Assembly: GCA_024691425.1 (NCBI GenBank)
Contig: JAILNQ010000106.1
Coordinates: 1 to 34,186, forward strand
Origin: Lachnospiraceae bacterium
GTDB taxonomy: Bacteria; Bacillota; Clostridia; Lachnospirales; Lachnospiraceae
Length of the DNA stretch: 34,186 bases
Direction: 5' to 3'
Shown: positions 21,320 to 31,961 of the stretch, in pieces
How the letters are laid out: each line of letters opens with the position of its first letter
How positions within the stretch are numbered: position 1 is the first letter of the stretch
Notes under the pieces: generated by a model
Seen by the model: the letters and a program-made list of their open reading frames with translations, nothing else
Databases searched by the model: none
What the model was told of the DNA's origin: nothing
Translations under genes and position numbers: made by a program

Positions 21320-21679
21320 TTATGAGCTGATGAATCTTTTTATACCGTCATATGTGGAATCACTGATATAATAACCCATGGTCCATGCATCCGATTTTGC
21401 AACGCTTTCATCGATTCCTAGAACATTCTGAAGAAATCCGCAGAGCATGACATATCTTTCATATATTTCCTCGGCTATCTTCTGCCCTTTTTCCGTAAAC
21501 TCGATCTCTCCATTTTCTTTCATCAGGATGATGTCCTTCTTCCTGAGATTTGACATGGCAAGAGAGACGCTCGCTTTTGAAAATCCCAGCTCGCGTGCAA
21601 CGTCTATGGAATGCAGGCATTTTATCCTGCCTTTTAACATATATATTGTCTTGATATAGTCTTCTGCGGATCGGTTCAT
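21320..21679 (-). CDS. DtxR/MntR-family transcriptional regulator with altered metal site
   Basis: 119 residues from the ATG; a GTG four codons upstream overlaps the methyltransferase stop and is an alternative start. The winged-helix half is intact (SAEDYIKTIYMLKG, HSIDVARELGFSKASVSLAMSNL, FTEKGQKIAEEIYER). The dimer/metal half is changed. Where family members have ERH they have Tyr here (Tyr76), and where they have C/E-x2-EH (MntR Glu99, Glu102, His103) this protein has Trp99, Gly102 and Tyr103. The residue matching MntR Glu11 is Lys; only the Asp matching Asp8 remains. The protein may therefore bind DNA without classical metal sensing. It is the last gene of the downstream feo cluster and is a candidate for acting on the TTAG-N6-CTAA sites. 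Confidence 0.85.
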   Translation of the reverse strand: MNRSAEDYIKTIYMLKGRIKCLHSIDVARELGFSKASVSLAMSNLRKKDIILMKENGEIEFTEKGQKIAEEIYERYVMLCGFLQNVLGIDESVAKSDAWTMGYYISDSTYDGIKRFISS

Positions 21680-21687
21680 TCTTAAAT

Positions 21688-22332
21688 TCACTTCGGTTTT
21701 CTCGCTACGCAGTGCATTCGGAAAAAACCCCTTCTTTCAAACAGTTCCATATCAAGACCGGCTTTTTGGCACAGCTCATCAACCTCATCCTTTCCATAGA
21801 CATGAACATCTCCGTGTCCTGCCATATTGATGATAGGAAGCTCAATATGGTTCATAAACCAGCGGATGATTGCGCTCGTTGATGTCATATCCCTCAGAAC
21901 GAGCCTTCCTCCGGGGCGAAGCACTTTATGAACACTGTTGAAAAAATCCTGCACGTTCGGATAATGGTGAAAACTCTGGCAGCATATCACCGCATCAAAA
22001 GAGTCCGGCTCAAACGGAAGATTTTCGCAATCGCCTACCACAAGTTCGACTCCTGGCATATTCTTTGACTTTGCGGCCTCAATCATCTTCGGTGTCAGAT
22101 CTATCCCGGTATATTTCTTGTCTGGATATTTATCCGTAAGAAGAGAAAGCATCGGCGCAGTTCCGCACCCGCAGTCGAGCAGATCCGTAAAGTCTTCCTT
22201 TTCAAGCTCCACAAGCACGTCCGGATAGTCTTTCTTGCACATTTTATAAACACCGGCCTGGTCGCTTTCGTATACATCCGCTGCTTTCGAAAACTCCTCG
22301 ATGGACATTTTCTTGAATTCTCTGTCAGTCAT
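21688..22332 (-). CDS. Class I SAM-dependent methyltransferase
   Basis: 214 residues of Methyltransf_11 type. SAM-binding motif I is LLDCGCGTAPML (about 51-62), followed by the acidic Asp after strand 2 in KYTGIDLTPKMI, GDCENLPFEPDSFDAVICCQ, and RPGGRLVLRDM. The C-terminal part (about 150-200: IIRWFMNHIELPIINMAGH) probably forms the substrate pocket and is not diagnostic. Its substrate is unknown. The ATG has a strong GGGAGGTGAC. It overlaps the FeoC-like gene by 8 bases and the regulator gene follows at once, so it belongs to the downstream iron operon, which is odd for a methylase. Confidence 0.9.
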   Translation of the reverse strand: MTDREFKKMSIEEFSKAADVYESDQAGVYKMCKKDYPDVLVELEKEDFTDLLDCGCGTAPMLSLLTDKYPDKKYTGIDLTPKMIEAAKSKNMPGVELVVGDCENLPFEPDSFDAVICCQSFHHYPNVQDFFNSVHKVLRPGGRLVLRDMTSTSAIIRWFMNHIELPIINMAGHGDVHVYGKDEVDELCQKAGLDMELFERRGFFRMHCVARKPK

Positions 22333-22597
22333 ATTTTTTCGTCACCTCCCACATTTCTCCCATGTTTTTAAATCCACCCTCCGGAAGGCACCCTTTACAC
22401 GGTGCGGTGCCGGAGTGCATTGCGCACTCCGAGCACGACGCACCACACGAAAGGAGGGAGATTTTTCGGATGGCTCCGATCTGTTCCAGATATTCAAGCT
22501 TTCGCTTGATATCGTCAGTATCAGTTTTCAGTTCGGACGCAAGCAGTTCGATCGTCCTTGCATGTCCGTCCTTAAGCAGTTCAAGAAGTTCTTCCAT
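22325..22597 (-). CDS. FeoC-like winged-helix protein with cysteine cluster
   Basis: 90 residues. Residues 1-50 look like a small winged helix (TIELLASELKTDTDDIKRKLEYLEQIGAI). Five Cys follow at 51, 55, 58, 67 and 70 in CGASCSECAMHSGTAPCKGC, consistent with an Fe-S cluster as in FeoC of Gram-negative bacteria. FeoC proteins are thought to regulate FeoB or feo transcription. It lies 58 bases after feoB with AAGGGGAT upstream and overlaps the methyltransferase gene. An iron-sulfur role is inferred. Confidence 0.75.
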   Translation of the reverse strand: MEELLELLKDGHARTIELLASELKTDTDDIKRKLEYLEQIGAIRKISLLSCGASCSECAMHSGTAPCKGCLPEGGFKNMGEMWEVTKKYD

Positions 22598-22655
22598 GTT
22601 TTTCCCTTATCCCCTTGCACCTCGGCCCGTTTAATCCGCCTCAGTCCCTGTCATG

Positions 22656-24671
22656 TTACCAGATCAGCAGTCCTATATGATAAGCCAGGAATGCGAGTAT
22701 GAGCGAGACCGCCGTATAGTAGAGCACGATCCTTGCAGTCCACTTTGCGGAATGGGTCTCCTGAAATGTTGCGGCCAGCGCTACAACGCAAGGCATGTTG
22801 AAAGTCATGGCAAAAATGAAAGCGAGCGCTTCGGGCTTCGTAACATTCGCAAGCAGGAGGCTGCTGAGGTTCGATGTATCCGCTCCTCCGGCCATAGCCT
22901 GAGAAAAGGCCGTGCCGTAAGAGCCGCCGCTGTAGAGAGCGCTGATAACGCCTACTGCTCCTTCCTTGCCGACAGCCGACGCTATGTAGGAAAGGAACAG
23001 CTGCCAGGGCAGTCCGAAGAACTTCGTGACAGGTTCTATTATAACACCGAGCCTATAGAGAATACCGCCGGACCCGGAAGGAGAATATGACAGAAGCCAG
23101 AATATGCCGCATACAAGAAGGATAACTTTGGTGACTCTTACAAACGTCTCCTTTGTCCTGCCGAGCACATATCTGAAAAGTGCGCCCCATTTCGGCTTGT
23201 GATATGGAGGAAGCTCCATGATCATTCCGAAGCGGTCCTCTTTCTTTACGAGTTTTCCGCCGAATATCTTTGCCGTTACCCACATATGAGCGAGCATCGT
23301 AAGGAGTATCACCGCGATCACAGCAACTGCACCAGGTCCGAAGAATATTGATGAGAGCATCGGGATCGTCGCCCATGCGGCTCCGCACGGAACGGCCCAA
23401 GCCAGTGCAATGGTCAGTACCTTCTGACCCCAGTTGTCGATGACTCTTGCGCCCGCTGCACCGCCCATGGTGCATCCGAAGCTGACAAGAAAGGGCATTA
23501 CGGACTTGCCCTGAAGTCCGAGTTTTCCCATCGTATTATCGAACACATACGATATCCGCGCCATAACACCGACTTCCTCGAGAAGTCCGAACACGAGTGT
23601 TACACCGAACACAAAACCAAGCATTTTGAATATGTACGAGAACGACTGGATAATAACGTCGCCGACAACAAGAACGAGAAATTCCGGACATCCGGCTGAA
23701 GAAAGAGCGCTCATCACCGGGGCCTTGATCGCCAGTATGGCCTCGCCGACTCCCATGAGCGGCAGCGCCGGTATGAAGGAAGCTATAAGCCCGAGAAGAA
23801 CAGTCAGTATTACCGCCGCCTTTCCCCATGTCCTGTTCGTATATATCCTGTCAAGCCTGCTCAGCGAGACAGGCTTCTCATCTGTTCTGACTGCTCCGCC
23901 GAGCAGCTCGTCGATCCATTTGAACTTGCATCCTCCTGTGGCAACCGCCCCGCTGGAATTTTTCCTTGCTGCCTCGATTTTATTGAAGGTATCCGCACCG
24001 AGGCTGTTCTTGAGCTTAGCCATGACCACCTCGTCATTTTCGATCACTTTTACCGCGAGCCACATGGAAGAATATCCTTCTATTGTATTGTCGGGAATAA
24101 GATCGCAGATATCCTGATATTCCTTAATGCTCTCGTACTGTCCCGCCAGATCGTCGATCTTAATTTTCGCGTTCGTCGACAGAGCTCTTTCAAGCGTCCT
24201 GTAGAAGCTGTCATATGACTTGACGTCCGTTGCTGAAAAAGGCACTACAGGTATTCCGAGCTTTTCTTCAATTGCTTTTGCATCGATTTTCTTACCTTGA
24301 TCCTCCGCTACATCCGCCATGTTAAGAAGAAGGAAACACGGCACGTTGATGCCGGCATAGTCAGCCAGCATGAACAGGCTTCTCTGCAGCTGGGAGCTGT
24401 CCGCAAGTATGCAGACTACATCGGCCTTGCCTGATGCAATGAAATCCCTTGTGATCACTTCCTCGTCAGAGTTAGCCGAAAGACTGTATGATCCCGGAAG
24501 ATCCGCAACCTTATATTCCTTTCCTCCGTACGAAAAGCTTCCTTCTTTCTTTTCTACCGTCTTGCCGGGCCAGTTGCCCACATGCTGGCGCATGCCCGTA
24601 AGCACGTTGAAAAGAGTCGACTTCCCGGAATTAGGCTGTCCGAGAAGCGCTATCGTGGCACCTGTGCTCAT
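22656..24671 (-). CDS. feoB: FeoB ferrous iron transporter, divergent form
   Basis: 671 residues. FeoB is a GTPase-linked Fe(II) importer. The N-terminal G domain has GQPNSGKST (G1, about 11-19), the switch region QHVGNWPGKTVEK, ADLPGSYS (G3) and LLLNMAD (G4, about 115-120). Membrane helices fill the rest, with GLLEEVGVMARISYV. Conserved gate segments are altered compared with the other copy: GCTMGGAAGARVID instead of GCGVPGVMASRT, and AVPCGAAWATIP instead of FIPCGAKVPF. The protein lacks the acidic loop of the other FeoB and may differ in metal choice or regulation. It overlaps feoA by four bases (ATGA) and is followed by the FeoC-like gene. Confidence 0.95.
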   Translation of the reverse strand: MSTGATIALLGQPNSGKSTLFNVLTGMRQHVGNWPGKTVEKKEGSFSYGGKEYKVADLPGSYSLSANSDEEVITRDFIASGKADVVCILADSSQLQRSLFMLADYAGINVPCFLLLNMADVAEDQGKKIDAKAIEEKLGIPVVPFSATDVKSYDSFYRTLERALSTNAKIKIDDLAGQYESIKEYQDICDLIPDNTIEGYSSMWLAVKVIENDEVVMAKLKNSLGADTFNKIEAARKNSSGAVATGGCKFKWIDELLGGAVRTDEKPVSLSRLDRIYTNRTWGKAAVILTVLLGLIASFIPALPLMGVGEAILAIKAPVMSALSSAGCPEFLVLVVGDVIIQSFSYIFKMLGFVFGVTLVFGLLEEVGVMARISYVFDNTMGKLGLQGKSVMPFLVSFGCTMGGAAGARVIDNWGQKVLTIALAWAVPCGAAWATIPMLSSIFFGPGAVAVIAVILLTMLAHMWVTAKIFGGKLVKKEDRFGMIMELPPYHKPKWGALFRYVLGRTKETFVRVTKVILLVCGIFWLLSYSPSGSGGILYRLGVIIEPVTKFFGLPWQLFLSYIASAVGKEGAVGVISALYSGGSYGTAFSQAMAGGADTSNLSSLLLANVTKPEALAFIFAMTFNMPCVVALAATFQETHSAKWTARIVLYYTAVSLILAFLAYHIGLLIW

Positions 24672-24895
24672 GCCGTCACCTCCTCAACTGTTATTCCTCT
24701 GCACTCATTTCTGTTAAGAGCGATCATGGTATCTCTCGAATATACGAGAATCGGCCTGTTTTTGTCGTTTTTAACGACTCTTACTCTGCATCCCGGAGTA
24801 AGCCCTATTGACGTGATCCGGCTCATGAATCTCGTATCACCGCTGATCTCGCTGATAAGCGCCTCCTTATTTTCTTTTACTTCGCTAAGACTCAT
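24668..24895 (-). CDS. feoA: FeoA-family SH3-like protein (downstream cluster)
   Basis: 75 residues. FeoA is a small cytoplasmic SH3-like protein needed for FeoB activity. Family pattern: TRFMSRITSIGLTPGCRVRVVK then RPILVYSRDTMIALNR. The ATG has a strong AAGGAGGAG. First gene of the downstream cluster, just after a promoter holding a TTAG-N6-CTAA operator. Confidence 0.93.
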   Translation of the reverse strand: MSLSEVKENKEALISEISGDTRFMSRITSIGLTPGCRVRVVKNDKNRPILVYSRDTMIALNRNECRGITVEEVTA

Positions 24896-24925
24896 CTGTT
24901 CTCCTCCTTAACCATGTACTGTTTT

Positions 24926-24954
24926 CATATGTTAGTTTATGCTAACATTGTCAT
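24926..24954 (-). promoter_or_regulatory. Promoter and operator of the downstream feo cluster
   Basis: On the minus strand, ATGACA (24949-24954) and a weak CATATG (24926-24931) are 17 bases apart. Between them lies an inverted repeat, ATGTTAG-N6-CTAACAT (24929-24948), with core TTAG-N6-CTAA at 24932-24945. The same core lies at the same place in the other feo promoter. A bound repressor would block RNA polymerase directly. The half-site resembles DtxR/IdeR-type boxes. Confidence 0.65.
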
Positions 24955-24972
24955 AAAAAAATATTACTTCTC

Positions 24973-25755
24973 TCATCCGAGAGCAACATCCAATGCCATC
25001 ATGAGCGTAAATCCCGTCGCGAACATTATTACGCCGATATTCGTATGTTCGCCTGCCGACATCTCCGGTATAAGCTCCTCTACTACTACATACATCATAG
25101 CGCCTGCCGCAAAGCTTAAAAGATACGGCATCGCCCGAACGATAAGCCCAGCCGCGAGAATGGTGAGCGCCGCACCGACAGGCTCAACCGCGCCCGACAG
25201 AACGCCGTCGAGAAATGCTCTGCCTTTACTCTTGCCCTCGGCGCAAAGAGGCATTGAGATAATGGCTCCCTCAGGGAAATTCTGTATGGCGATTCCGAGC
25301 GCTAACGCCAGCGCGCCGCCTGCCGTAATGGACGCATTTTTAGAGATCAGTCCGGCGTAGACAACACCGACGGCCATTCCTTCAGGGATGTTGTGAAGAG
25401 TGACCGCAAGAACCATCATGGTGGTTTTCTTAAGTCTCGCCTTAGGGCCTTCTGCCTTTTCGGCGTTCATATGAAGATGAGGTGTGACAGAATCGAGCAC
25501 AAGCAGGAAAAGGATTCCGAGCCAGAATCCTGCGCATGCAGGAACAAAGCTCAAACTGCCGAGTCCTTCCGACTGCTCCATCGCCGGTATGATGAGGCTC
25601 CATATCGATGCCGCGACCATAACGCCGCTTGCAAAACCCGTAAGGGCTCTCTGAACCTTTGCACCGAGTCCGTTTTTCAGAAGGAACACGCATGCCGACC
25701 CCAGTGCCGTTCCGGTAAAAGGTATCATTATGCCCATCAGAACTTCTATGCTCAA
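24973..25755 (-). CDS. ZIP-family metal transporter (GufA-like)
   Basis: 260 residues with about eight hydrophobic segments. ZIP importers carry divalent metals such as Zn(II), Fe(II) or Mn(II). Signature helices contain TLHNIPEGMAVGV (HN-x-PEG metal site) and IAIQNFPEGAIIS (QN-x-PEG). A mid-loop with HLHMNAEK may bind metal. The start appears to be TTG (25753-25755) with GAGGTAAG just before it, overlapping the preceding stop; an ATG six codons later is the alternative. It follows the MBL/methyltransferase gene by ten bases and is probably the last gene of the upstream cluster, adding a second metal importer beside FeoB. Confidence 0.93.
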   Translation of the reverse strand: MSIEVLMGIMIPFTGTALGSACVFLLKNGLGAKVQRALTGFASGVMVAASIWSLIIPAMEQSEGLGSLSFVPACAGFWLGILFLLVLDSVTPHLHMNAEKAEGPKARLKKTTMMVLAVTLHNIPEGMAVGVVYAGLISKNASITAGGALALALGIAIQNFPEGAIISMPLCAEGKSKGRAFLDGVLSGAVEPVGAALTILAAGLIVRAMPYLLSFAAGAMMYVVVEELIPEMSAGEHTNIGVIMFATGFTLMMALDVALG

Positions 25756-25765
25756 TAAGCTTACC

Positions 25766-27283
25766 TCATTTCACGCATTTAAAATACACGATCGATCCGT
25801 CCATATGGTATTCAACGTCCGAATAAAGCCTGCGCAGGATATCAAGCAGCTGCTCTCTTGTTGGAAACGGCGGAGAAAACCACCCTTTCTTCGACAGGAT
25901 CCTGTGCACAAGCCAGTCTGTTCTTGCGGATTCTCCTTTGATATAAAAGCACGCTATGAACATCCCGCCCTTCTTGAGAACGCGGTATGTTTCGCGGAAC
26001 GCTCTGTTTTTATCGGGGAAAGCGTGAAACCCGTTCATGCTCATGACGATGCCGCAGCTTTCGTCAGATATCGGAAGATGTGCCACATCCCCCTGCATCA
26101 GAGTGATATGTCCGCAGTTCTTCAGTCTCTGTTCGGCTTTTTTCAGCATGTCCTCGCTATAGTCCAGACACGTGATCTTCGCCGATGTCAGTTTTTTCCA
26201 TTTCTTCTCGGTAAACACCGCAGTTCCGACCGGAACATCAAGTATCGTGCCATCGTAATCATCCGGGATGTACGACAGCACATTCCTTGCCACTTCGTTA
26301 TCATCAGTCCCGCTCCAGAAGAAATCCATATAAGCCCTGCTCAGAAAATTCCCCCGTGTGAGCACAGTATCATAAATGTCCTTCGAGGCATGATATGCCT
26401 CCGTTATCTTATCGGAAACAGGAAGCGCTTTTGCAAGTCTTTCCGTTCTCGCTCTTTTTTCCGTATCGCCTCTTTCATCATATCCGTCATAAGGCGCCAT
26501 AGGATCGTGGGGCTTCTGTTTTCTGAAGCTGTTGCACACTCTGTCCTTGTGGGCAAAAACAAAATCCGGATCGTCCGACCATCCCGTATGGCCCGTTATG
26601 ATCTTAGGTCTGATGCCCCTGTTTCTTATCAGATTCTCAAGTTTTACAAGAGATCTTTTTGCAAGATTGTTATCTTCGGCCAGCGAATTGATGAAACTGT
26701 ACCCGCCGTCGGCTCCGAGCCATATCGTATCACCCGTGAACAGATAGGCATTGTCTATCAGGTAGACCATATGCCCCCACGTATGACCGGGGACAAGGAT
26801 CGCTTCAACCCTGATATCGTCGATATAGAAGACATCTCCATTCCTGAGAAGAGCGCGTTCGTTATCGCACTTTACCATAGGGAGCTTATACAGGCCGAAA
26901 ATCACTCTGCGCCTTTTCTGGCCGGTCATATAGCGATTTTCGATCTCACTTATATAAAGCTTGGCTTTTCTGAAAAGTCCGGCGCTGTCACGCTCCACGG
27001 CGCCTACATGATCCGTGTCCTGATGAGTGATCAGGATATGACGGATAGAGGCGGGATCTATGTCGAGCCACTTCATTTTTTCCTCTAGCCGGTCATAATT
27101 GTAACCCGCATCGATCATTATCGTAGTGCCGTTTTTCGTATAAAAGAATATATTGGCTATCCATTCGCGGACACATGCGACATTGTCATCTATCCACCCT
27201 GTGTTGAGAGGCTTGAATATCTCCTTGCCGCGGTATCCCCACGACATGACTTTCTTTTGAAATTGAGACGCCTTTTTTGACAT
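25766..27283 (-). CDS. Metallo-beta-lactamase-fold hydrolase fused to a SAM methyltransferase
   Basis: 505 residues. Residues of about 25-245 are an MBL-fold domain: ITHQDTDHVG (His87, Asp89, Asp91, His92; HxHxDH with the second His replaced by Asp), PGHTWGHMV (His167), FTGDTIW (Asp185) and TGHTGWS (His232). Residues of about 300-505 are a class I methyltransferase: DGTILDVPVGTAVF, ITCLDYSEDML, GDVAHLPISDESCGIV and LKKGGMFIACFY. The substrate of either half is unknown. The ATG has AAGGGAAA. It sits between the Cys-rich Feo peptide and the ZIP gene, 23 and 10 bases away, so it belongs to the iron operon. The other iron operon also has a methyltransferase, a repeated pairing worth notice. Confidence 0.88.
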   Translation of the reverse strand: MSKKASQFQKKVMSWGYRGKEIFKPLNTGWIDDNVACVREWIANIFFYTKNGTTIMIDAGYNYDRLEEKMKWLDIDPASIRHILITHQDTDHVGAVERDSAGLFRKAKLYISEIENRYMTGQKRRRVIFGLYKLPMVKCDNERALLRNGDVFYIDDIRVEAILVPGHTWGHMVYLIDNAYLFTGDTIWLGADGGYSFINSLAEDNNLAKRSLVKLENLIRNRGIRPKIITGHTGWSDDPDFVFAHKDRVCNSFRKQKPHDPMAPYDGYDERGDTEKRARTERLAKALPVSDKITEAYHASKDIYDTVLTRGNFLSRAYMDFFWSGTDDNEVARNVLSYIPDDYDGTILDVPVGTAVFTEKKWKKLTSAKITCLDYSEDMLKKAEQRLKNCGHITLMQGDVAHLPISDESCGIVMSMNGFHAFPDKNRAFRETYRVLKKGGMFIACFYIKGESARTDWLVHRILSKKGWFSPPFPTREQLLDILRRLYSDVEYHMDGSIVYFKCVK

Positions 27284-27306
27284 GGCTATTTCCCTTTAGC
27301 GGCCAG

Positions 27307-27492
27307 TCACCGCCCGCGGTTCTCCTTCCTGTTGCAGGAAGCGCACAGACCGCAGTGCGCGCAGTTCCCGCCACAGGAAGATATCCCGTTCTTTTTGTCT
27401 TTTATCATTTTAAAGATCACGGCTGTCACTACGGCTATGAGGACCGCCGAAACAACTATCGTCCCAAGATTTGCCGTTATCCATGCAATCAT
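27307..27492 (-). CDS. FeoB-associated Cys-rich membrane protein
   Basis: 61 residues. A single membrane helix lies at about 8-28, then a basic stretch and a cysteine cluster CGGNCAHCGLCASC (Cys40, 44, 47, 50, 53). This matches the small FeoB-associated Cys-rich proteins found after feoB in Clostridia, thought to help iron transfer. The ATG has AAGGAG. It lies 25 bases after feoB. Confidence 0.9.
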   Translation of the reverse strand: MIAWITANLGTIVVSAVLIAVVTAVIFKMIKDKKNGISSCGGNCAHCGLCASCNRKENRGR

Positions 27493-27517
27493 CCGTTATC
27501 TCCTTTTTTGATGCACG

Positions 27518-29926
27518 TTACGGATTGGCAGATACTGCCATCGTAAGCTTGTCTGCTTCTTTATACTTCTTGAAGAACAGCATGTAGATCATCACTGCAA
27601 GTGCTGCAAAAGCTACTATCAGTCCAAGAATGTTCACGTTACCAGTGAACAGACCGCCAAACTGGTTGATCATTAAAGCAATGATGTATGCGAATCCGCA
27701 CTGATAACCGATCGCGAACCATGTCCACTTCGGATTGTTCATCTCACGCTTTATTGCACCGATAGCTGCAAAGCAAGGTGCGCACAGAAGATTGAACACC
27801 AGGAACGAGAATCCCGTCACGCTCGTGAATGCCGCCGCAAGAGACTGCCACGCAGTAAGCTCTCCACCTCCGTACAGAATACCCATTGTACCGACAATGT
27901 TCTCCTTTGCGACAAGGCCGGTGATAGATGCGACCGCCGCCTGCCAGTTGCCCCATCCGAGAGGGATGAAGATCCATGCTATGGCGCTTCCGATCCTTGC
28001 AAGTATCGAAAGGTCGAGTTCGTCATCGGCAAGCATCCTGAAGCCGTCGGATGTGAATCCGAAGTAGCTTGTGAACCATACAACTATCGTGGAAAGGAGT
28101 ATGATCGTTCCGGCTTTCTTGATGAATGACCATCCACGCTCCCACATTGATCTCAGGACATTTCCGAGCGTCGGCATATGATATGCGGGAAGCTCCATTA
28201 CGAAAGGAGCAGGATCGCCCGCGAACATTTTTGTCTTCTTAAGCATTATACCCGAAATTACGATGGCTGCCATCCCTATAAAGTATGCGGATGTCGATAC
28301 CCAAGCGGATCCGCCGAAAATCGCTCCTGCTATCATCGCGATGAACGGAACCTTTGCTCCGCAGGGGATGAATGTCGTTGTCATGATCGTCATACGGCGA
28401 TCTCTTTCATTCTCAATAGTACGGCTTGCCATTACTCCGGGAACGCCGCAGCCCACGCCGATGAGCATCGGGATGAATGATTTTCCTGAAAGACCGAATC
28501 TTCTGAACACACGGTCAAGGACAAATGCGATCCTTGCCATGTAGCCGCACGCCTCAAGGAACGCGAGCATCAGGAACAGGACAAGCATCTGAGGTACAAA
28601 TCCGAGAACCGCACCTACGCCGGCGACTATACCGTCAAGAATAAGTCCCTTGAGCCAATCAGCTGCACCGACTGCATCAAGACCTGACTCCACGAGAGCG
28701 GGAATTCCGGGAATCCATGTGCCGTACTCTGCAGGATCTGGCTCCTCACCGATCTCCTCGAGCGTCTTTACGGCCTCCTCATAATCTTCTATGCTCGCCG
28801 TCTCTTCAGATGTCTCAAGAGTTTCCTCATCCTCTACGGAATACGTGAATTCACCTGTTGGTTCAAAGCCGTTTTCTTCAACATACGCATCATATCCGTC
28901 TACGATCGCGGATGCATCGCCGAATCTCTCTGCGATCTCTCCATAACCTCCGTCATTTCCGAAAAGATGGAATCCGTCTCCGAAAATGCAGTCATTTGTA
29001 AAATCAGTTGCCGGAGCTCCGACGCCTACCATAGCTACCCAGTAAACTATGAACATGACCGCGGCAAAAATGATAAGACCGAGGAACCTGTTAGTAACGA
29101 TCTTGTCGATCTTATCGGAAGTCGTGAGCGCTCCCGCATTTTTCTTTTTGTAACATGACTTTATTACTTCTGCAATATATACATAGCGTTCATTGGTGAT
29201 AATGGATTCTGCATCATCATCAAGTTCCTTTTCGGCCGCCGCTATATCGTTTTCTATATGTGAAAGCTTGTCGGCTGGAATACTGAGCTTCGCCATGACT
29301 TTATCATCACGCTCGAACACCTTTATCGCATACCATCTCTGCTGTTCTTCAGGCATGTCATGAACAACCGCTTCCTCTATGTGCGCTATCGCATGCTCTA
29401 CGGGGCCTGAGAAAGTATGCTGCGGAACCGTTTTTGTTCCCCTTGCTGCTTTTATCGCCTCTTCAGCGGCTTCAAGCACGCCCTCTCCTTTGAGCGCTGA
29501 TATCTCCGTAACTTTACAGCCGAGCTGTCTGGACAGTTCGTCGATATTAATCTTATCACCGTTCTTCCTGACCACGTCGATCATGTTGACGGCAACCACG
29601 ACCGGTATGCCGAGCTCTGTGAGCTGTGTCGTAAGGTACAGATTTCTCTCAAGATTCATTCCGTCTATGATGTTCAGTATTGCATCGGGACGCTCGCCTA
29701 TAAGGTAGTTCCTGGCGACCACTTCCTCCAGCGTATAAGGGGAAAGTGAATATATTCCCGGCAGGTCAGTGATCGTAACATCATCATGCTTTTTAAGTTT
29801 TCCTTCTTTCTTTTCCACGGTAACGCCCGGCCAGTTTCCGACGAACTGATTGGAGCCGGTGAGCGTGTTGAACAGTGTTGTCTTTCCGCTGTTCGGATTT
29901 CCCGCTAGTGCGATAGTAAGACTCAT
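27518..29926 (-). CDS. feoB: FeoB ferrous iron transporter with acidic extracytoplasmic loop
   Basis: 802 residues, longer than the usual 650-780. The G domain has GNPNSGKTT (about 9-17), QFVGNWPGVTVEK, TDLPGIYSLSP and VAVNMIDV (G4). The membrane part carries LGFVPQMLVLF, LEACGYMARIAFV, GVGCGVPGVMASRT and FIPCGAKVPF, the standard gate motifs. Between the first membrane helix (about 281-300) and the next (about 428) is an enlarged loop, strongly acidic from about 330 to 400 (VEDEETLETSEE, TLEEIGEEPDPAEY), which should face outside. It may attract cations. AGGATGAG precedes the ATG. It follows two feoA genes in the same direction and is the main FeoB by motif conservation. Confidence 0.96.
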   Translation of the reverse strand: MSLTIALAGNPNSGKTTLFNTLTGSNQFVGNWPGVTVEKKEGKLKKHDDVTITDLPGIYSLSPYTLEEVVARNYLIGERPDAILNIIDGMNLERNLYLTTQLTELGIPVVVAVNMIDVVRKNGDKINIDELSRQLGCKVTEISALKGEGVLEAAEEAIKAARGTKTVPQHTFSGPVEHAIAHIEEAVVHDMPEEQQRWYAIKVFERDDKVMAKLSIPADKLSHIENDIAAAEKELDDDAESIITNERYVYIAEVIKSCYKKKNAGALTTSDKIDKIVTNRFLGLIIFAAVMFIVYWVAMVGVGAPATDFTNDCIFGDGFHLFGNDGGYGEIAERFGDASAIVDGYDAYVEENGFEPTGEFTYSVEDEETLETSEETASIEDYEEAVKTLEEIGEEPDPAEYGTWIPGIPALVESGLDAVGAADWLKGLILDGIVAGVGAVLGFVPQMLVLFLMLAFLEACGYMARIAFVLDRVFRRFGLSGKSFIPMLIGVGCGVPGVMASRTIENERDRRMTIMTTTFIPCGAKVPFIAMIAGAIFGGSAWVSTSAYFIGMAAIVISGIMLKKTKMFAGDPAPFVMELPAYHMPTLGNVLRSMWERGWSFIKKAGTIILLSTIVVWFTSYFGFTSDGFRMLADDELDLSILARIGSAIAWIFIPLGWGNWQAAVASITGLVAKENIVGTMGILYGGGELTAWQSLAAAFTSVTGFSFLVFNLLCAPCFAAIGAIKREMNNPKWTWFAIGYQCGFAYIIALMINQFGGLFTGNVNILGLIVAFAALAVMIYMLFFKKYKEADKLTMAVSANP

Positions 29927-29973
29927 TTTTCTCTCATCCTTTCTGTTTTCTGATCATTGATTCATAACAGGCT

Positions 29974-30195
29974 TCATTTGACCTCGATCATTTCTGCATC
30001 CGCTTTACGGATGGAAAGCTCATAGTTCCTTACATTCACTTCGATCGGATCGCCGAGCGGCGCAACCTTGCGGACAAACACTTCCGTGTTCTTCGTGATC
30101 CCCATATCCATGATCCTGCGTTTTACCGCTCCCTCGCCGTGAAGTTTGACTACTGTAGCCGTTTCTCCGATTTTTAAATCTCTTAATGTTTTCAC
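29974..30195 (-). CDS. feoA: FeoA-family protein (second of the upstream cluster)
   Basis: 73 residues, SH3-like FeoA: MKTLRDLKIGETATVVKLHG, RRIMDMGITKNTEVFVRKVAPLGDP, and NYELSIRKADAEMIEV. This is the more canonical FeoA of the two. The start is GTG (30193-30195) with a strong AAGGAGGAGCG. Gap of 47 bases to feoB and 32 bases from the previous feoA. Confidence 0.95.
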   Translation of the reverse strand: MKTLRDLKIGETATVVKLHGEGAVKRRIMDMGITKNTEVFVRKVAPLGDPIEVNVRNYELSIRKADAEMIEVK

Positions 30196-30227
30196 TTATC
30201 GCTCCTCCTTCTGTTTCATATATACAC

Positions 30228-30440
30228 TTAAACCATTATCTTTCTGGCAAGCTCATCACTGACGGCGACCCGGCTTTCCTTCACCTTTACTATCAGATTC
30301 GTGCCGAGAGAGCTTACAATGCTCACTTCTCCTCCGACATTGAATCCGAGATCCTCAAGATGCTTTTTGACCTCTGGGCTTCCGCCGATCCTTTTGATTA
30401 TCATAGGCTCTTCTTTTTCTGCAAAAACAAGCGGCATCAT
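30228..30440 (-). CDS. feoA: FeoA-family protein (first of the upstream cluster)
   Basis: 70 residues. SH3-like: EVKKHLEDLGFNVGGEVSIVSSLGTNLIVKVKESRVAVSDELARKI. It begins with two ATG codons in tandem; AGGAGGA lies before them. First gene after the promoter with three operator copies. Paired FeoA proteins before FeoB are common in Clostridia. Confidence 0.92.
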   Translation of the reverse strand: MMPLVFAEKEEPMIIKRIGGSPEVKKHLEDLGFNVGGEVSIVSSLGTNLIVKVKESRVAVSDELARKIMV

Positions 30441-30466
30441 ACTGTTCCTCCTGTGTATTCTTGTTG

Positions 30467-30480
30467 TTAGCTCTTGCTAA
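30467..30480. promoter_or_regulatory. Operator copy A of the upstream feo cluster
   Basis: TTAGCTCTTGCTAA, an imperfect inverted repeat with the TTAG-N6-CTAA core. It lies in the leader, 27 bases before the first feoA ATG. Confidence 0.6.
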
Positions 30481-30498
30481 CCTGTAGGCATAAGAAAA

Positions 30499-30516
30499 GG
30501 TTAGCGTACCCTAACC
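30499..30516. promoter_or_regulatory. Operator copy B of the upstream feo cluster
   Basis: GGTTAGCGTACCCTAACC, core TTAG-N6-CTAA at 30501-30514, one mismatch from a perfect 18-base palindrome. It lies at the expected transcription start, centred 30 bases from copy C and 34 bases from copy A. Confidence 0.7.
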
Positions 30517-30523
30517 GATACCA

Positions 30524-30552
30524 AGTATAGTTAGCGTACGCTAATATGTCAA
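30524..30552 (-). promoter_or_regulatory. Promoter and operator copy C of the upstream feo cluster
   Basis: On the minus strand a perfect TTGACA (30547-30552) and TATACT (30524-30529) are 17 bases apart. The spacer contains a perfect palindrome TTAGCGTACGCTAA (30531-30544). A strong promoter that a dimeric repressor could cover fully. Confidence 0.82.
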
Positions 30553-30582: not shown

Positions 30583-31305
30583 TTATTTCCACGGTCTTGC
30601 TTGGCCGATCCAACCGTTTTCTTTCCAGTACTTATAGTCGGTATACTCGCTATCCTGTTTCCCGAGGCTCGTCTGGAGCATCCTTACGGCGTAGAACTTT
30701 GCTTTCACCGCAAGATCTGTATGACCGGGTCTGCTGTAATCGATGGCACGCATTTTTATTGCTTCGCTAGTAAGCCTCTTTTTGAAAGACGCTTTCTTCT
30801 TTTCATCGATCTTATTCCAGTCGATATCCGCCATTAGTTTGAATGTGATAACCCTGATCGAAGAGATGCCCCACCATGAAAGACTGTCCTTGATATCCTT
30901 TGCTGTGGACTTTCCGCCTGCGCCGAGGCACTGGGTGATGATCACCGCATGCTTTCCGAACATCTCCTTTGCAGGACGATGCGGCATCCAGCGATAGCCG
31001 AAGTGATCCAGCATGGTCTTCATAGCGCCGGTAGCATGGAACACATAGGCAGGGGACGTAAACACAAGCAGATCAGCTTCAAGCAAAGACTTCTCGATCT
31101 TCTGAACATACTCTGCATCTTTGCAGAGATGCTCATCTTTTAGGAAACACGCCGTACATCCCACGCAGAAGTTCGGGCAATCCTTAGGAAGATAATACTC
31201 CGTGATCGTTGCATCATCTCTGAAACTCTCTAAGAACATTTCTTTCATTCTGTATGTCACACCATGTTTTTCGGTCCCATTGATCACTGTTATCTTCATT
31301 TTCAT
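30583..31305 (-). CDS. Flavodoxin-fold NAD(P)H-dependent oxidoreductase with Cys cluster
   Basis: 240 residues. An FMN-binding flavodoxin fold begins ITVINGTEKHGVTYRM (phosphate loop), with FTSPAYVFHATGAMKTMLDH typical of the FMN_red/iron-sulfur flavoprotein family. Five Cys at 43, 47, 50, 53 and 61 (CPNFCVGCTACF and then LCKD) may hold a cluster or disulfides. Its electron acceptor is unknown. The start ATG overlaps the TetR stop by four bases, so the pair is one operon. It may be a redox enzyme induced by the TetR ligand. No terminator is visible before the feo promoter downstream. Confidence 0.85.
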   Translation of the reverse strand: MKMKITVINGTEKHGVTYRMKEMFLESFRDDATITEYYLPKDCPNFCVGCTACFLKDEHLCKDAEYVQKIEKSLLEADLLVFTSPAYVFHATGAMKTMLDHFGYRWMPHRPAKEMFGKHAVIITQCLGAGGKSTAKDIKDSLSWWGISSIRVITFKLMADIDWNKIDEKKKASFKKRLTSEAIKMRAIDYSRPGHTDLAVKAKFYAVRMLQTSLGKQDSEYTDYKYWKENGWIGQARPWK

Positions 31306-31961
31306 CTTCCTCGGTGATTTTTCTTTATCTGCTTCCGGTCGATTTTTGTATCTCTGGCATATAGTCTGTTAAACTGTCTGATATGCGCCTCCATTGTTTT
31401 GCGCGCCTCCGCCTCACGTTCCGGTTCACGGTCGCATATGGTAAGCAGAAAATAGATCGGCGCATAGAAATGCAATGTCATGATTTCAACGTTCTCCGCC
31501 TGCAGAACACCTGACGAAACCATCAGGCCGAAAAGCATTCCCTGATAGGAAAGCGGATCATCCACATACTGTTTCGTATAAGCCGCAGCTAGTTTCCTGT
31601 CATGAAACTGTTCGATGGTGAGCATTTTACGGAAACGTCTTGTGCAGTCATCGTGCAGGAAATACTGAAACAGATCGTTCCCGAGAGCGATCAGCTGCTC
31701 TTCCGATATATGCTTATATATTTCCGCATCCGCTGCAGCGTCCGATCCGCTGATCTGCAGGGAACCCGCCTCCTCCAGAAAGCGCCTGTCCATCTCTTCA
31801 ATGATCGCATCGAAGATAGCCTGCTTGTTCTTATAATGCTTATAAAGGGACGGCGCCTTAATACCTACCCTCTCGGCAATATCCGCAACAAAAACATTTG
31901 CATATCCCTTTTCGGAAAAAAGCGTCAAAGCTTCATCCAGTATTCTGTGTTTGGTATCCAT
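31302..31961 (-). CDS. TetR-family transcriptional repressor
   Basis: 219 residues. The N-terminal helix-turn-helix is typical: ILDEALTLFSEKGYANVFVADIAERVGIKAPSLYKHYKNKQAIFD compressed over residues 7-51, with SLYKHYKNK as recognition region. The C-terminal ligand domain is not assignable. It probably represses its own operon, including the flavoprotein gene, through the two palindromes just upstream. The start ATG has AAGGGAT. Confidence 0.93.
   Translation of the reverse strand: MDTKHRILDEALTLFSEKGYANVFVADIAERVGIKAPSLYKHYKNKQAIFDAIIEEMDRRFLEEAGSLQISGSDAAADAEIYKHISEEQLIALGNDLFQYFLHDDCTRRFRKMLTIEQFHDRKLAAAYTKQYVDDPLSYQGMLFGLMVSSGVLQAENVEIMTLHFYAPIYFLLTICDREPEREAEARKTMEAHIRQFNRLYARDTKIDRKQIKKNHRGR

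What the first reader, a model, noticed from the sequence alone, without database searches (positions are those of the whole stretch)
21320..30552. Two Feo operons sharing one operator type, each with a SAM methyltransferase
The upstream cluster is feoA-feoA-feoB-Cys peptide-MBL/methyltransferase-ZIP; the downstream is feoA-feoB-FeoC-like-methyltransferase-DtxR-like. A methyltransferase domain occurs in both, with different architecture. Established: FeoA/FeoB/FeoC move Fe(II). Inference: a methylation step, possibly on a small metal-binding molecule or a metal-site protein, is coupled to iron acquisition. I know of no described role for such enzymes in Feo operons.
Basis: partly seen in the sequence, partly recalled or inferred. 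Interest (0 to 1): 0.7.

Follow-up and report, generated by a model that had tools for sequence, protein, structure and literature searches.

The report
Methyltransferases in a bacterial iron-starvation regulon
In a group of gut bacteria, many of them from ruminants, enzymes that add methyl groups to molecules sit beside iron-uptake genes and share their DNA switch, which suggests that chemically altering a small molecule is part of how these microbes cope with too little iron.

Summary
Two adjacent minus-strand feo operons each carry a class I SAM methyltransferase (a 505-aa MBL-methyltransferase fusion, and MT214) and share a palindrome, GTTAGCNNNNGCTAAC: three copies before feoA1, one of them inside the promoter spacer, and one before feoA3. 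It looks like an iron-starvation operator: 79 exact sites in 37 genus genomes (reversed control 1), before feo, DtxR, flavodoxin, ZIP, P-type ATPase and ABC genes. Methyltransf_11 genes are enriched near it (11 within 1 kb, 0.48 expected), also on contigs not scored as carrying feo. Direct feo adjacency is mostly confined to this genus: 6 of 16 FeoB2 loci, 0 of 40 feoB loci chosen from other genera. MT214 occurs in 12 of 173 genera sampled, in part behind the operator and beside hydrolases, a reductase and transporters. I read the methyltransferases as accessory iron-starvation enzymes acting on small molecules, most plausibly metal chelators; the substrate is unproven. Published Bacteroidetes transcriptomes list iron-induced methyltransferases. 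The operon's DtxR-like protein has lost most metal ligands and is probably not the sensor.

The parts
30524..30552 (-). promoter-like site TTGACA-17-TATACT of the first feo operon
   Evidence: 11 of 12 consensus matches, best of 12 sites in 10.7 kb (12.5 expected in shuffles)
30530..30545 (.). operator copy 1, in the spacer between -35 and -10, one mismatch of 12
30500..30515 (.). operator copy 2, one mismatch of 12
30466..30481 (.). operator copy 3, exact GTTAGCNNNNGCTAAC
30228..30440 (-). feoA1
   Evidence: PF04023 52.6 bits
29974..30195 (-). feoA2
   Evidence: PF04023 77.6 bits
27518..29926 (-). feoB1, 802 aa
   Evidence: PF02421, PF07670, PF07664, PF17910; TIGR00437 550 bits
27307..27492 (-). 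FeoB-associated Cys-rich membrane peptide
   Evidence: PF12669 53.9 bits
25766..27283 (-). metallo-beta-lactamase-fold domain fused to a class I SAM methyltransferase, 505 aa
   Evidence: PF00753 residues 40-217, PF08241 residues 348-443; motif HQDTDH and later His/Asp ligands conserved in the aligned relatives that carry the domain
24973..25755 (-). ZIP/ZupT-like divalent metal transporter
   Evidence: PF02535 74.6 bits; ZupT model 107 of 252 bits
24931..24946 (.). operator-like site of the second feo operon, one mismatch of 12
24668..24895 (-). feoA3
   Evidence: PF04023 57.3 bits
22656..24671 (-). feoB2, 671 aa
   Evidence: PF02421; TIGR00437 361 bits
22325..22597 (-). FeoC-like winged-helix protein with a Cys-rich tail
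   Evidence: PF09012 19.9 bits, under its cut-off of 21
21688..22332 (-). MT214, class I SAM methyltransferase
   Evidence: PF08241 92.7 bits; AlphaFold2 model pLDDT 82.4
21320..21691 (-). DtxR/MntR-like protein with degenerate metal site
   Evidence: PF01325 and PF02742; ligand positions replaced

Best explanation
Shown by sequence: both operons carry a palindrome that recurs in the genus before feo, DtxR, flavodoxin, ZIP and ABC genes, and in other genera of the family before DtxR, flavodoxin-like, feo, ABC and ECF genes. In the window's genus several methyltransferase families (MT214, F18, F15, LCM, PEMT/ICMT) lie behind it, inside or outside feo operons. Inferred: it is the operator of a DtxR-type iron-starvation regulon. 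When iron falls, repression is lifted and Feo imports Fe(II) while IrtAB/YbtPQ-like ABC and Trep_Strep-type ECF systems import metal-ligand complexes. The methyltransferases, with their MBL, alpha/beta-hydrolase, ATC-hydrolase-like, transglutaminase-like and ketopantoate-reductase-like partners, then act on the imported or cellular small-molecule ligand, for example by methylating a donor O, N or S so that iron is released or the ligand cannot chelate it again. The feo operon is one of several places where these genes have settled.
For: Operator in the promoter spacer. 79 exact sites against 1 reversed in 37 genus genomes; in 150 family genomes 106 against 9, in 51 genomes. Operator units include feo, DtxR, DUF3793-flavodoxin, ZIP, DUF6110-P-ATPase, ABC pairs, Trep_Strep-EcfT. 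Methyltransf_11 near 75 exact sites: 11 within 1 kb against 0.48 expected, 27 within 5 kb against 1.85; on contigs not scored as carrying feo 17 against 1.34. 12 of 63 genus operator sites with a unit have a methyltransferase in it, one behind DUF3793-flavodoxin (L115). In the own genome an F15-F18 methyltransferase pair follows an operator-like site with one mismatch. MT214 of other genera: a site with at most 2 of 12 mismatches within 200 bp upstream in 8 of 21, 0.53 expected. The MBL domain is fused to two different methyltransferases and to a reductase. ABC half 1 of L062 scores best, among single-half PDB chains listed, with IrtA and with 6p6i_A, taken as YbtP. Fold neighbours of MT214 include many natural-product methyltransferases. 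Iron depletion induces TetR-ABC-ABC operons and class I SAM and ICMT methyltransferases in Bacteroidetes (PMC10434189, passages).
Against: No substrate is known and fold does not show function; METTL6 and Trm112-bound enzymes tie with the natural-product enzymes. In other genera 0 of 32 exact sites (21 loci that I chose) had a methyltransferase in the unit, so these enzymes are accessory, not core. One-mismatch sites are not enriched in the own genome (27 against 83 reversed), and 6 of 21 MT214 loci have no site with at most 2 mismatches within 2.7 kb. MT214 and the fusion are rare in the family: 5 of 60 and 2 of 60 genomes. In the equibactin system the YbtPQ-like pair may export (PMC3672683, passages), and ABC half 2 is no closer to YbtQ (255 bits) than to TM_0288 (262 bits). 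Genus genomes are related, so the enrichments overstate independence. Iron response was not measured. P-type ATPase, MATE and MacB-like genes behind the operator could equally point to efflux.
Confidence: 0.42

Rival explanations
1. The methyltransferases belong to a biosynthetic route for a small metallophore or signal that is exported under iron starvation; the ABC pair, MATE and MacB-like proteins are exporters and the hydrolases and reductase are tailoring enzymes.
For: ABC pairs, MATE and HlyD/MacB-like genes follow the operator; a GNAT acetyltransferase and an acyltransferase occur nearby; an ORF that looks by eye like an AMP-forming ligase lies in L105, though the weak site there is inside another ORF; the YbtPQ-like EqbKL pair may export.
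Against: No NRPS, NIS synthetase or nicotianamine synthase was recognised among the genes annotated here, though no systematic search was made. Several hydrolase families fit breakdown better than assembly. ABC half 1 is nearer to IrtA and YbtP than to MsbA.
Confidence: 0.2
2. The methyltransferases detoxify: iron starvation raises the uptake of other metals, metalloids or metal-binding toxins, and methylation plus efflux (P-type ATPase, MATE, ABC) disposes of them.
For: P-type ATPase units share the operator and sometimes the unit with MT214 (L112) or F18 (L154); F15 just passes the TehB profile (22.0 bits, cut-off 20.4); weak arsenite-methyltransferase matches; DUF6110 proteins are reported with P1B6 ATPases (PMC9374683, passages).
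Against: The arsenite methyltransferase matches are far below cut-off (49.6 of 263 bits). Flavodoxin, feo and DtxR behind the same operator are an iron-starvation set.
Confidence: 0.17
3. Hitch-hiking: the feo region is a hotspot for mobile small-enzyme genes, and the methyltransferases are there without a role in iron.
For: Feo adjacency is patchy in the genus (6 of 16 FeoB2 loci), absent from 40 chosen feoB loci of other genera, and the nearest MT214 homologs of the first survey are not beside feo.
Against: Methyltransferases sit near the same operator away from feo (17 against 1.34 expected on contigs not scored as carrying feo). Gene overlaps of 4-8 bp tie MT214 to the FeoC-like and DtxR-like genes.
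Confidence: 0.15
4. The methyltransferases modify a protein or membrane lipid to remodel the cell envelope under iron starvation.
For: F18 carries N-terminal hydrophobic stretches (read from its sequence); PEMT/ICMT-type enzymes occur in an operator unit; a phosphatidylethanolamine N-methyltransferase is among MT214's fold neighbours.
Against: MT214 and the MBL-methyltransferase show no obvious membrane segments (read from sequence) and pair with hydrolases, a reductase and transporters.
Confidence: 0.06

Closest known systems
Iron stimulon of Bacteroidetes (P. gingivalis, P. intermedia, B. thetaiotaomicron; PMC10434189)
   Same: Iron depletion induces flavodoxin, TetR plus two ABC genes, class I SAM methyltransferases and ICMT-family methyltransferases (passages read).
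   Different: Another phylum. Homology of those methyltransferases to MT214, F15 or F18 was not tested here. The passages read mention no operator of this kind, no methyltransferase inside a feo operon and no MBL fusion.
Equibactin locus of Streptococcus equi (PMC3672683)
   Same: DtxR-like regulator, a three-gene ABC importer (eqbHIJ) and a YbtPQ-like pair (passages); L233 has feoA3-feoB2-ABC-ABC-Trep_Strep-EcfT-ABC behind one operator.
   Different: Equibactin has an NRPS; none was recognised here. That EqbH is a Trep_Strep protein was not tested.
IrtAB / YbtPQ siderophore importers
   Same: ABC half 1 (L062) scores 330 bits with IrtA and 314 with 6p6i_A (taken as YbtP), 258 with MsbA.
   Different: Half 2 does not discriminate: YbtQ chain 255, TM_0288 262 bits.
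Canonical Feo operon (FeoA, FeoB, FeoC or Cys-rich peptide)
   Same: FeoA, FeoB and Cys-rich peptide present, FeoC-like below cut-off; two feoA genes in one locus and the Cys-rich peptide are described (PMC8749426, passages).
   Different: Methyltransferase, MBL and ZIP genes added; the word methyltransferase does not occur in that paper's main text.
GtmA, gliotoxin S-methyltransferase (5jgk)
   Different: 15 percent identity, one row among many tied ones; shared fold only.

Membership tests
Feo ferrous iron transport operon | FeoB with G domain, gate and C-terminal domains | tested here: met
   feoB1 550 and feoB2 361 bits to TIGR00437, cut-off 315.65; Pfam domains
Feo ferrous iron transport operon | FeoA beside FeoB | tested here: met
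   three FeoA genes over the PF04023 cut-off
Feo ferrous iron transport operon | FeoC | tested here: inconclusive
   90-aa protein at 19.9 bits, cut-off 21
DtxR-type iron regulon | palindromic operator before several iron genes | tested here: met
   weak sites alone are not significant
DtxR-type iron regulon | DtxR-family protein with intact metal ligands in the genome | tested here: met
   second DtxR at G000:C102 (L155) keeps RH and ACRIEH; the operon-encoded copy does not
DtxR-type iron regulon | repression by Fe(II), binding of DtxR to the operator | not testable with these tools
   needs binding assay and transcriptomics
class I SAM methyltransferase | Rossmann-like methyltransferase domain with SAM-binding motif | tested here: met
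   PF08241 92.7 and 71.6 bits; MT214 fold matches; the fusion has the variant motif DVPVGTA
metallo-beta-lactamase fold hydrolase | HxHxDH and later His/Asp/His ligands | tested here: inconclusive
   PF00753 58.6 bits but variant HQDTDH (HxDxDH), with PGHTWGH, TGDT, TGHTGW; activity unknown
xenosiderophore uptake and processing system | siderophore-type importer co-regulated with processing enzymes | tested here: inconclusive
   one ABC half is IrtA/YbtP-like, the other is not decisive; no substrate
siderophore biosynthesis cluster | NRPS, NIS synthetase or nicotianamine synthase-like condensing enzyme | not tested
   none recognised among annotated neighbours (the listing was cut); no systematic search was made

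The most novel reading that the evidence does not exclude
Methylative iron release: an iron-starvation regulon of anaerobes imports foreign iron chelators (IrtAB/YbtPQ-like and ECF importers) and takes them apart in the cell with a modular set of methyltransferases, an MBL-fold enzyme, hydrolases and a reductase, methylating the metal-binding groups so that Fe is set free and the ligand cannot capture it again. In the window this module has been built into two feo operons.
Probability: 0.2. Interest if true: 0.85.

Novelty: new variant of a known kind. Interest (0 to 1): 0.57.

Why it matters
How anaerobic gut Firmicutes obtain iron when free Fe(II) is short is, to my knowledge, poorly known. 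A named operator, a census of its units and a defined methyltransferase set turn an odd neighbour of feoB into a testable iron-regulated pathway, and may link it to iron-induced methyltransferases already listed in Bacteroidetes. If the substrate is a metal chelator, it would be a mode of iron release other than reduction or hydrolysis of the siderophore.

Tried and rejected
Feo adjacency as the defining feature: rejected as too narrow. Of 19 MT214 loci fetched from other genera, 18 gave a gene map (L190 gave none) and 1 showed feo within the seven genes printed on each side (L184). The nearest homologs of the first survey, G041 and G008, showed no feo match, and the fusion of G010 lies at a contig end with no feo on 12.6 kb.

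Operon-encoded DtxR-like protein as the iron sensor: rejected as unlikely, because the positions of MntR H77, E99, E102 and H103 (numbering recalled) read Y, W, G, Y. L052 is partly degenerate; L184 keeps C-E-H.

Literature on a described role: ten searches gave none in their listings; the library holds open-licence papers only.

Led nowhere: structure comparison of the MBL-methyltransferase (model pLDDT 70.7, pTM 0.51; fold search not accepted, machine busy). The Bacteroidetes methyltransferases were not compared by sequence.

Limits of the counts. One search lists fewer sites than it counts (79); 75 were used, and the methyltransferase places there were typed from the truncated listing, so the observed numbers are lower bounds. 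Contigs were scored as carrying feo only. One search counts only sites with a recognisable unit (63, in 49 of the 57 loci given), one unit twice (L133), and one weak 150-aa match (L108); one search counts all 32 sites in 20 regions that I chose plus L233. The profile was built from regulon methyltransferases and may miss other families. In one search the 40 foreign loci were chosen from the longer list, from 38 genomes, and only 20 had five genes on both sides. Of the 16 FeoB2 loci, seven had fewer than five genes on a side (L052, L075, L076, L078, L082, L083, L086). L053, L071 and L128, also listed, came from other searches, so I use 6 of 16 and not the 8 of 19. L058 and L085, L063 and L081, L055 and L127, L057 and L146, L059 and L130 appear to be the same loci fetched twice (equal contig lengths). 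The output was cut.

Full report
What is there. The window is a whole contig (34,186 bases) of a 2.56-Mb genome, 84 percent complete. The first operon runs feoA1, feoA2, feoB1, PF12669 peptide, MBL-methyltransferase fusion, ZIP; the second feoA3, feoB2, FeoC-like, MT214, DtxR-like. Genes are 10 to 58 bp apart or overlap by 4 to 8 bp; the 77-bp gap before feoA3 holds an operator-like site.

The operator. GTTAGCNNNNGCTAAC occurs three times before feoA1 (one exact, two with one mismatch of 12) and once, with one mismatch, before feoA3. One copy lies in the 17-bp spacer of the best promoter-like site of the region. In 37 genomes of the genus 29 hold an exact copy, 79 sites in all, against 1 for the reversed pattern. 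In 150 genomes of the family, one per genus, 51 hold a copy, 106 sites against 9 reversed, so single sites there may be chance. In the own genome the 10-base core with at most one mismatch is not enriched (27 against 83 reversed).

The regulon. Units behind exact sites in the genus hold feoA/feoB, DtxR, ZIP, DUF6110-P-ATPase, ABC pairs, DUF3793-flavodoxin, MATE and methyltransferases (63 sites with a unit in 49 loci). In other genera 32 sites in 21 loci that I chose gave DtxR, feo, ABC pairs, Trep_Strep-EcfT and, read by likeness, DUF3793 and flavodoxin genes, and no methyltransferase. Flavodoxin and DUF3793 were confirmed by Pfam in L186 and L115. One foreign locus, L233, has feoA3-feoB2-ABC-ABC-Trep_Strep-EcfT-ABC behind one operator. 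I infer an iron-starvation regulon; no expression was measured. The genome's other DtxR (G000:C102, L155) keeps the ligand pattern RH and ACRIEH, while the operon-encoded copy reads Y, W, G, Y at the positions of MntR H77, E99, E102 and H103 (numbering recalled).

Methyltransferases in the regulon. Methyltransf_11 hits number 360 in the 37 genus genomes. Within 1 kb of 75 exact sites there are 11, expected 0.48; within 5 kb 27, expected 1.85; on contigs not scored as carrying feo 17, expected 1.34, in 9 genomes. The genomes are related, so I do not lean on the P values. At 12 of 63 sites the unit holds a methyltransferase of the MT214, F18, F15, LCM or ICMT types. L115 has DUF3793-flavodoxin-F18-F15 in one unit. 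The window's genome has an F15-F18 pair behind an operator-like site (one mismatch) at C9. F15 itself occurs in 16 of 150 family genomes at E 1e-45.

Feo adjacency. Of the 16 FeoB2 loci of the genus found, 6 have a methyltransferase within five genes (window, L052, L079, L081, L082, L084), 10 do not; seven of the 16 had fewer than five genes on a side. Of 40 feoB loci chosen from other genera of the family none has one, though only 20 had full flanks. Fisher exact P is 0.00025.

Wider range of MT214. Matches at E 1e-45 or better occur in 21 of 392 genomes of the order, 12 of 173 genera, two families. Of 19 loci fetched 18 gave a map. Feo is shown in one (L184, next to a DtxR-like gene 64 percent identical to the window's). 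Others show ZIP-KPR-MT214 (L181, L182), DUF6110-P-ATPase with DUF3793-flavodoxin (L186), MT214-F18-ABC-ABC (L188), ABC-TetR (L185), alpha/beta hydrolases (L180, L183, L192), a transglutaminase-like protein (L181), an ATC-hydrolase-like protein (L191) and ICMT (L193); some, such as L176, L179 and L194, show few or none of these. A site with at most 2 of 12 mismatches lies within 200 bp upstream of MT214 in 8 of 21 loci, expected 0.53; within 2.7 kb upstream at most one mismatch in 6 of 21; L179, L180, L185, L187, L189 and L017 have none with at most 2 mismatches in 2.7 kb.

The MBL domain. The scan for the fusion gave 22 loci, 19 titled Lachnospiraceae, with the match limited to the MBL part in a Coriobacteriales genome and a Methanobrevibacter bin. 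6 of 22 hold feoB on the same locus (L052, L053, L058, L063, L071, L073); the other 16, some cut short by contig ends, do not. Copies without the window-type methyltransferase (L063 to L069, L072) are 69 to 82 percent identical in the MBL part. The domain is fused to the window-type methyltransferase, in L062 to an F18-type one and in L065 to an ApbA reductase; in L063 it stands alone beside F18. Such shuffling suggests one pathway.

What it may do. ABC half 1 (L062) scores 330 bits with IrtA and 314 with 6p6i_A, taken as YbtP, against 258 for MsbA; half 2 is not decisive. The MT214 model (pLDDT 82.4) has natural-product methyltransferases such as TleD, RebM and AtmM among its nearest folds, with METTL6 and Trm112-bound enzymes tied with them. 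Hydrolases, a reductase and transporters as neighbours favour processing of a small ligand. This step is inference; my confidence in the whole statement is 0.42, and in the regulon membership alone about 0.85.

Literature. PMC10434189 (passages) reports iron-depletion induction of flavodoxin, TetR-ABC-ABC operons, class I SAM methyltransferases (15.8-fold PG1870, 64.1-fold PIOMA14_I_0824) and ICMT proteins. PMC8749426 on Feo evolution does not contain the word methyltransferase in its main text. PMC9374683 places DUF6110 with P1B6 ATPases (passages). PMC3672683 describes a DtxR-like regulator, the EqbHIJ importer and YbtPQ-like EqbKL (passages). The listings of ten searches showed no described role for a methyltransferase in a feo operon.

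Noticed in passing
21320-21691: DtxR-like gene of the second operon has lost most metal ligands; a relative in L184 (64 percent identical) keeps C-E-H, so the loss may be recent.
   Followed up: partly
L233 (G004:C7): Operator, feoA3, feoB2 (44 percent), two ABC half-transporters, Trep_Strep, EcfT and a further ABC gene in one unit: a Feo system joined to a siderophore-type importer set.
   Followed up: partly
L065 3274-5142, also L064, L066: The same MBL domain fused to an ApbA/ketopantoate-reductase-like domain in L065; L064 and L066 carry proteins of the same cluster.
   Followed up: no
L122 5169-6476, L110 4208-4954: Enolase and a histidine-phosphatase (phosphoglycerate-mutase-like) gene directly behind exact operators; glycolysis genes in a metal regulon are unexpected.
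   Followed up: no
L072 10001-10864, L068: MBL domain 69 percent identical in a Methanobrevibacter bin and 76 percent in a Coriobacteriales genome, suggesting transfer between distant lineages or a binning error.
   Followed up: no
L052 17553-18404, L177 2201-2872: DUF6796 membrane proteins of unknown function recur near the methyltransferases.
   Followed up: no
G000:C105 (L021): The third feoB of this genome showed no operator with at most one mismatch and no match to either window methyltransferase in 16 kb.
   Followed up: partly
30583-31961: FMN reductase and TetR genes lie just upstream of the first operator, on the same strand.
   Followed up: no
L071 10961-11332, L104 6017-6430: Small proteins joining a PF12669-like Cys-rich segment to an HMA metal-binding domain, in several loci first behind the operator.
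   Followed up: no
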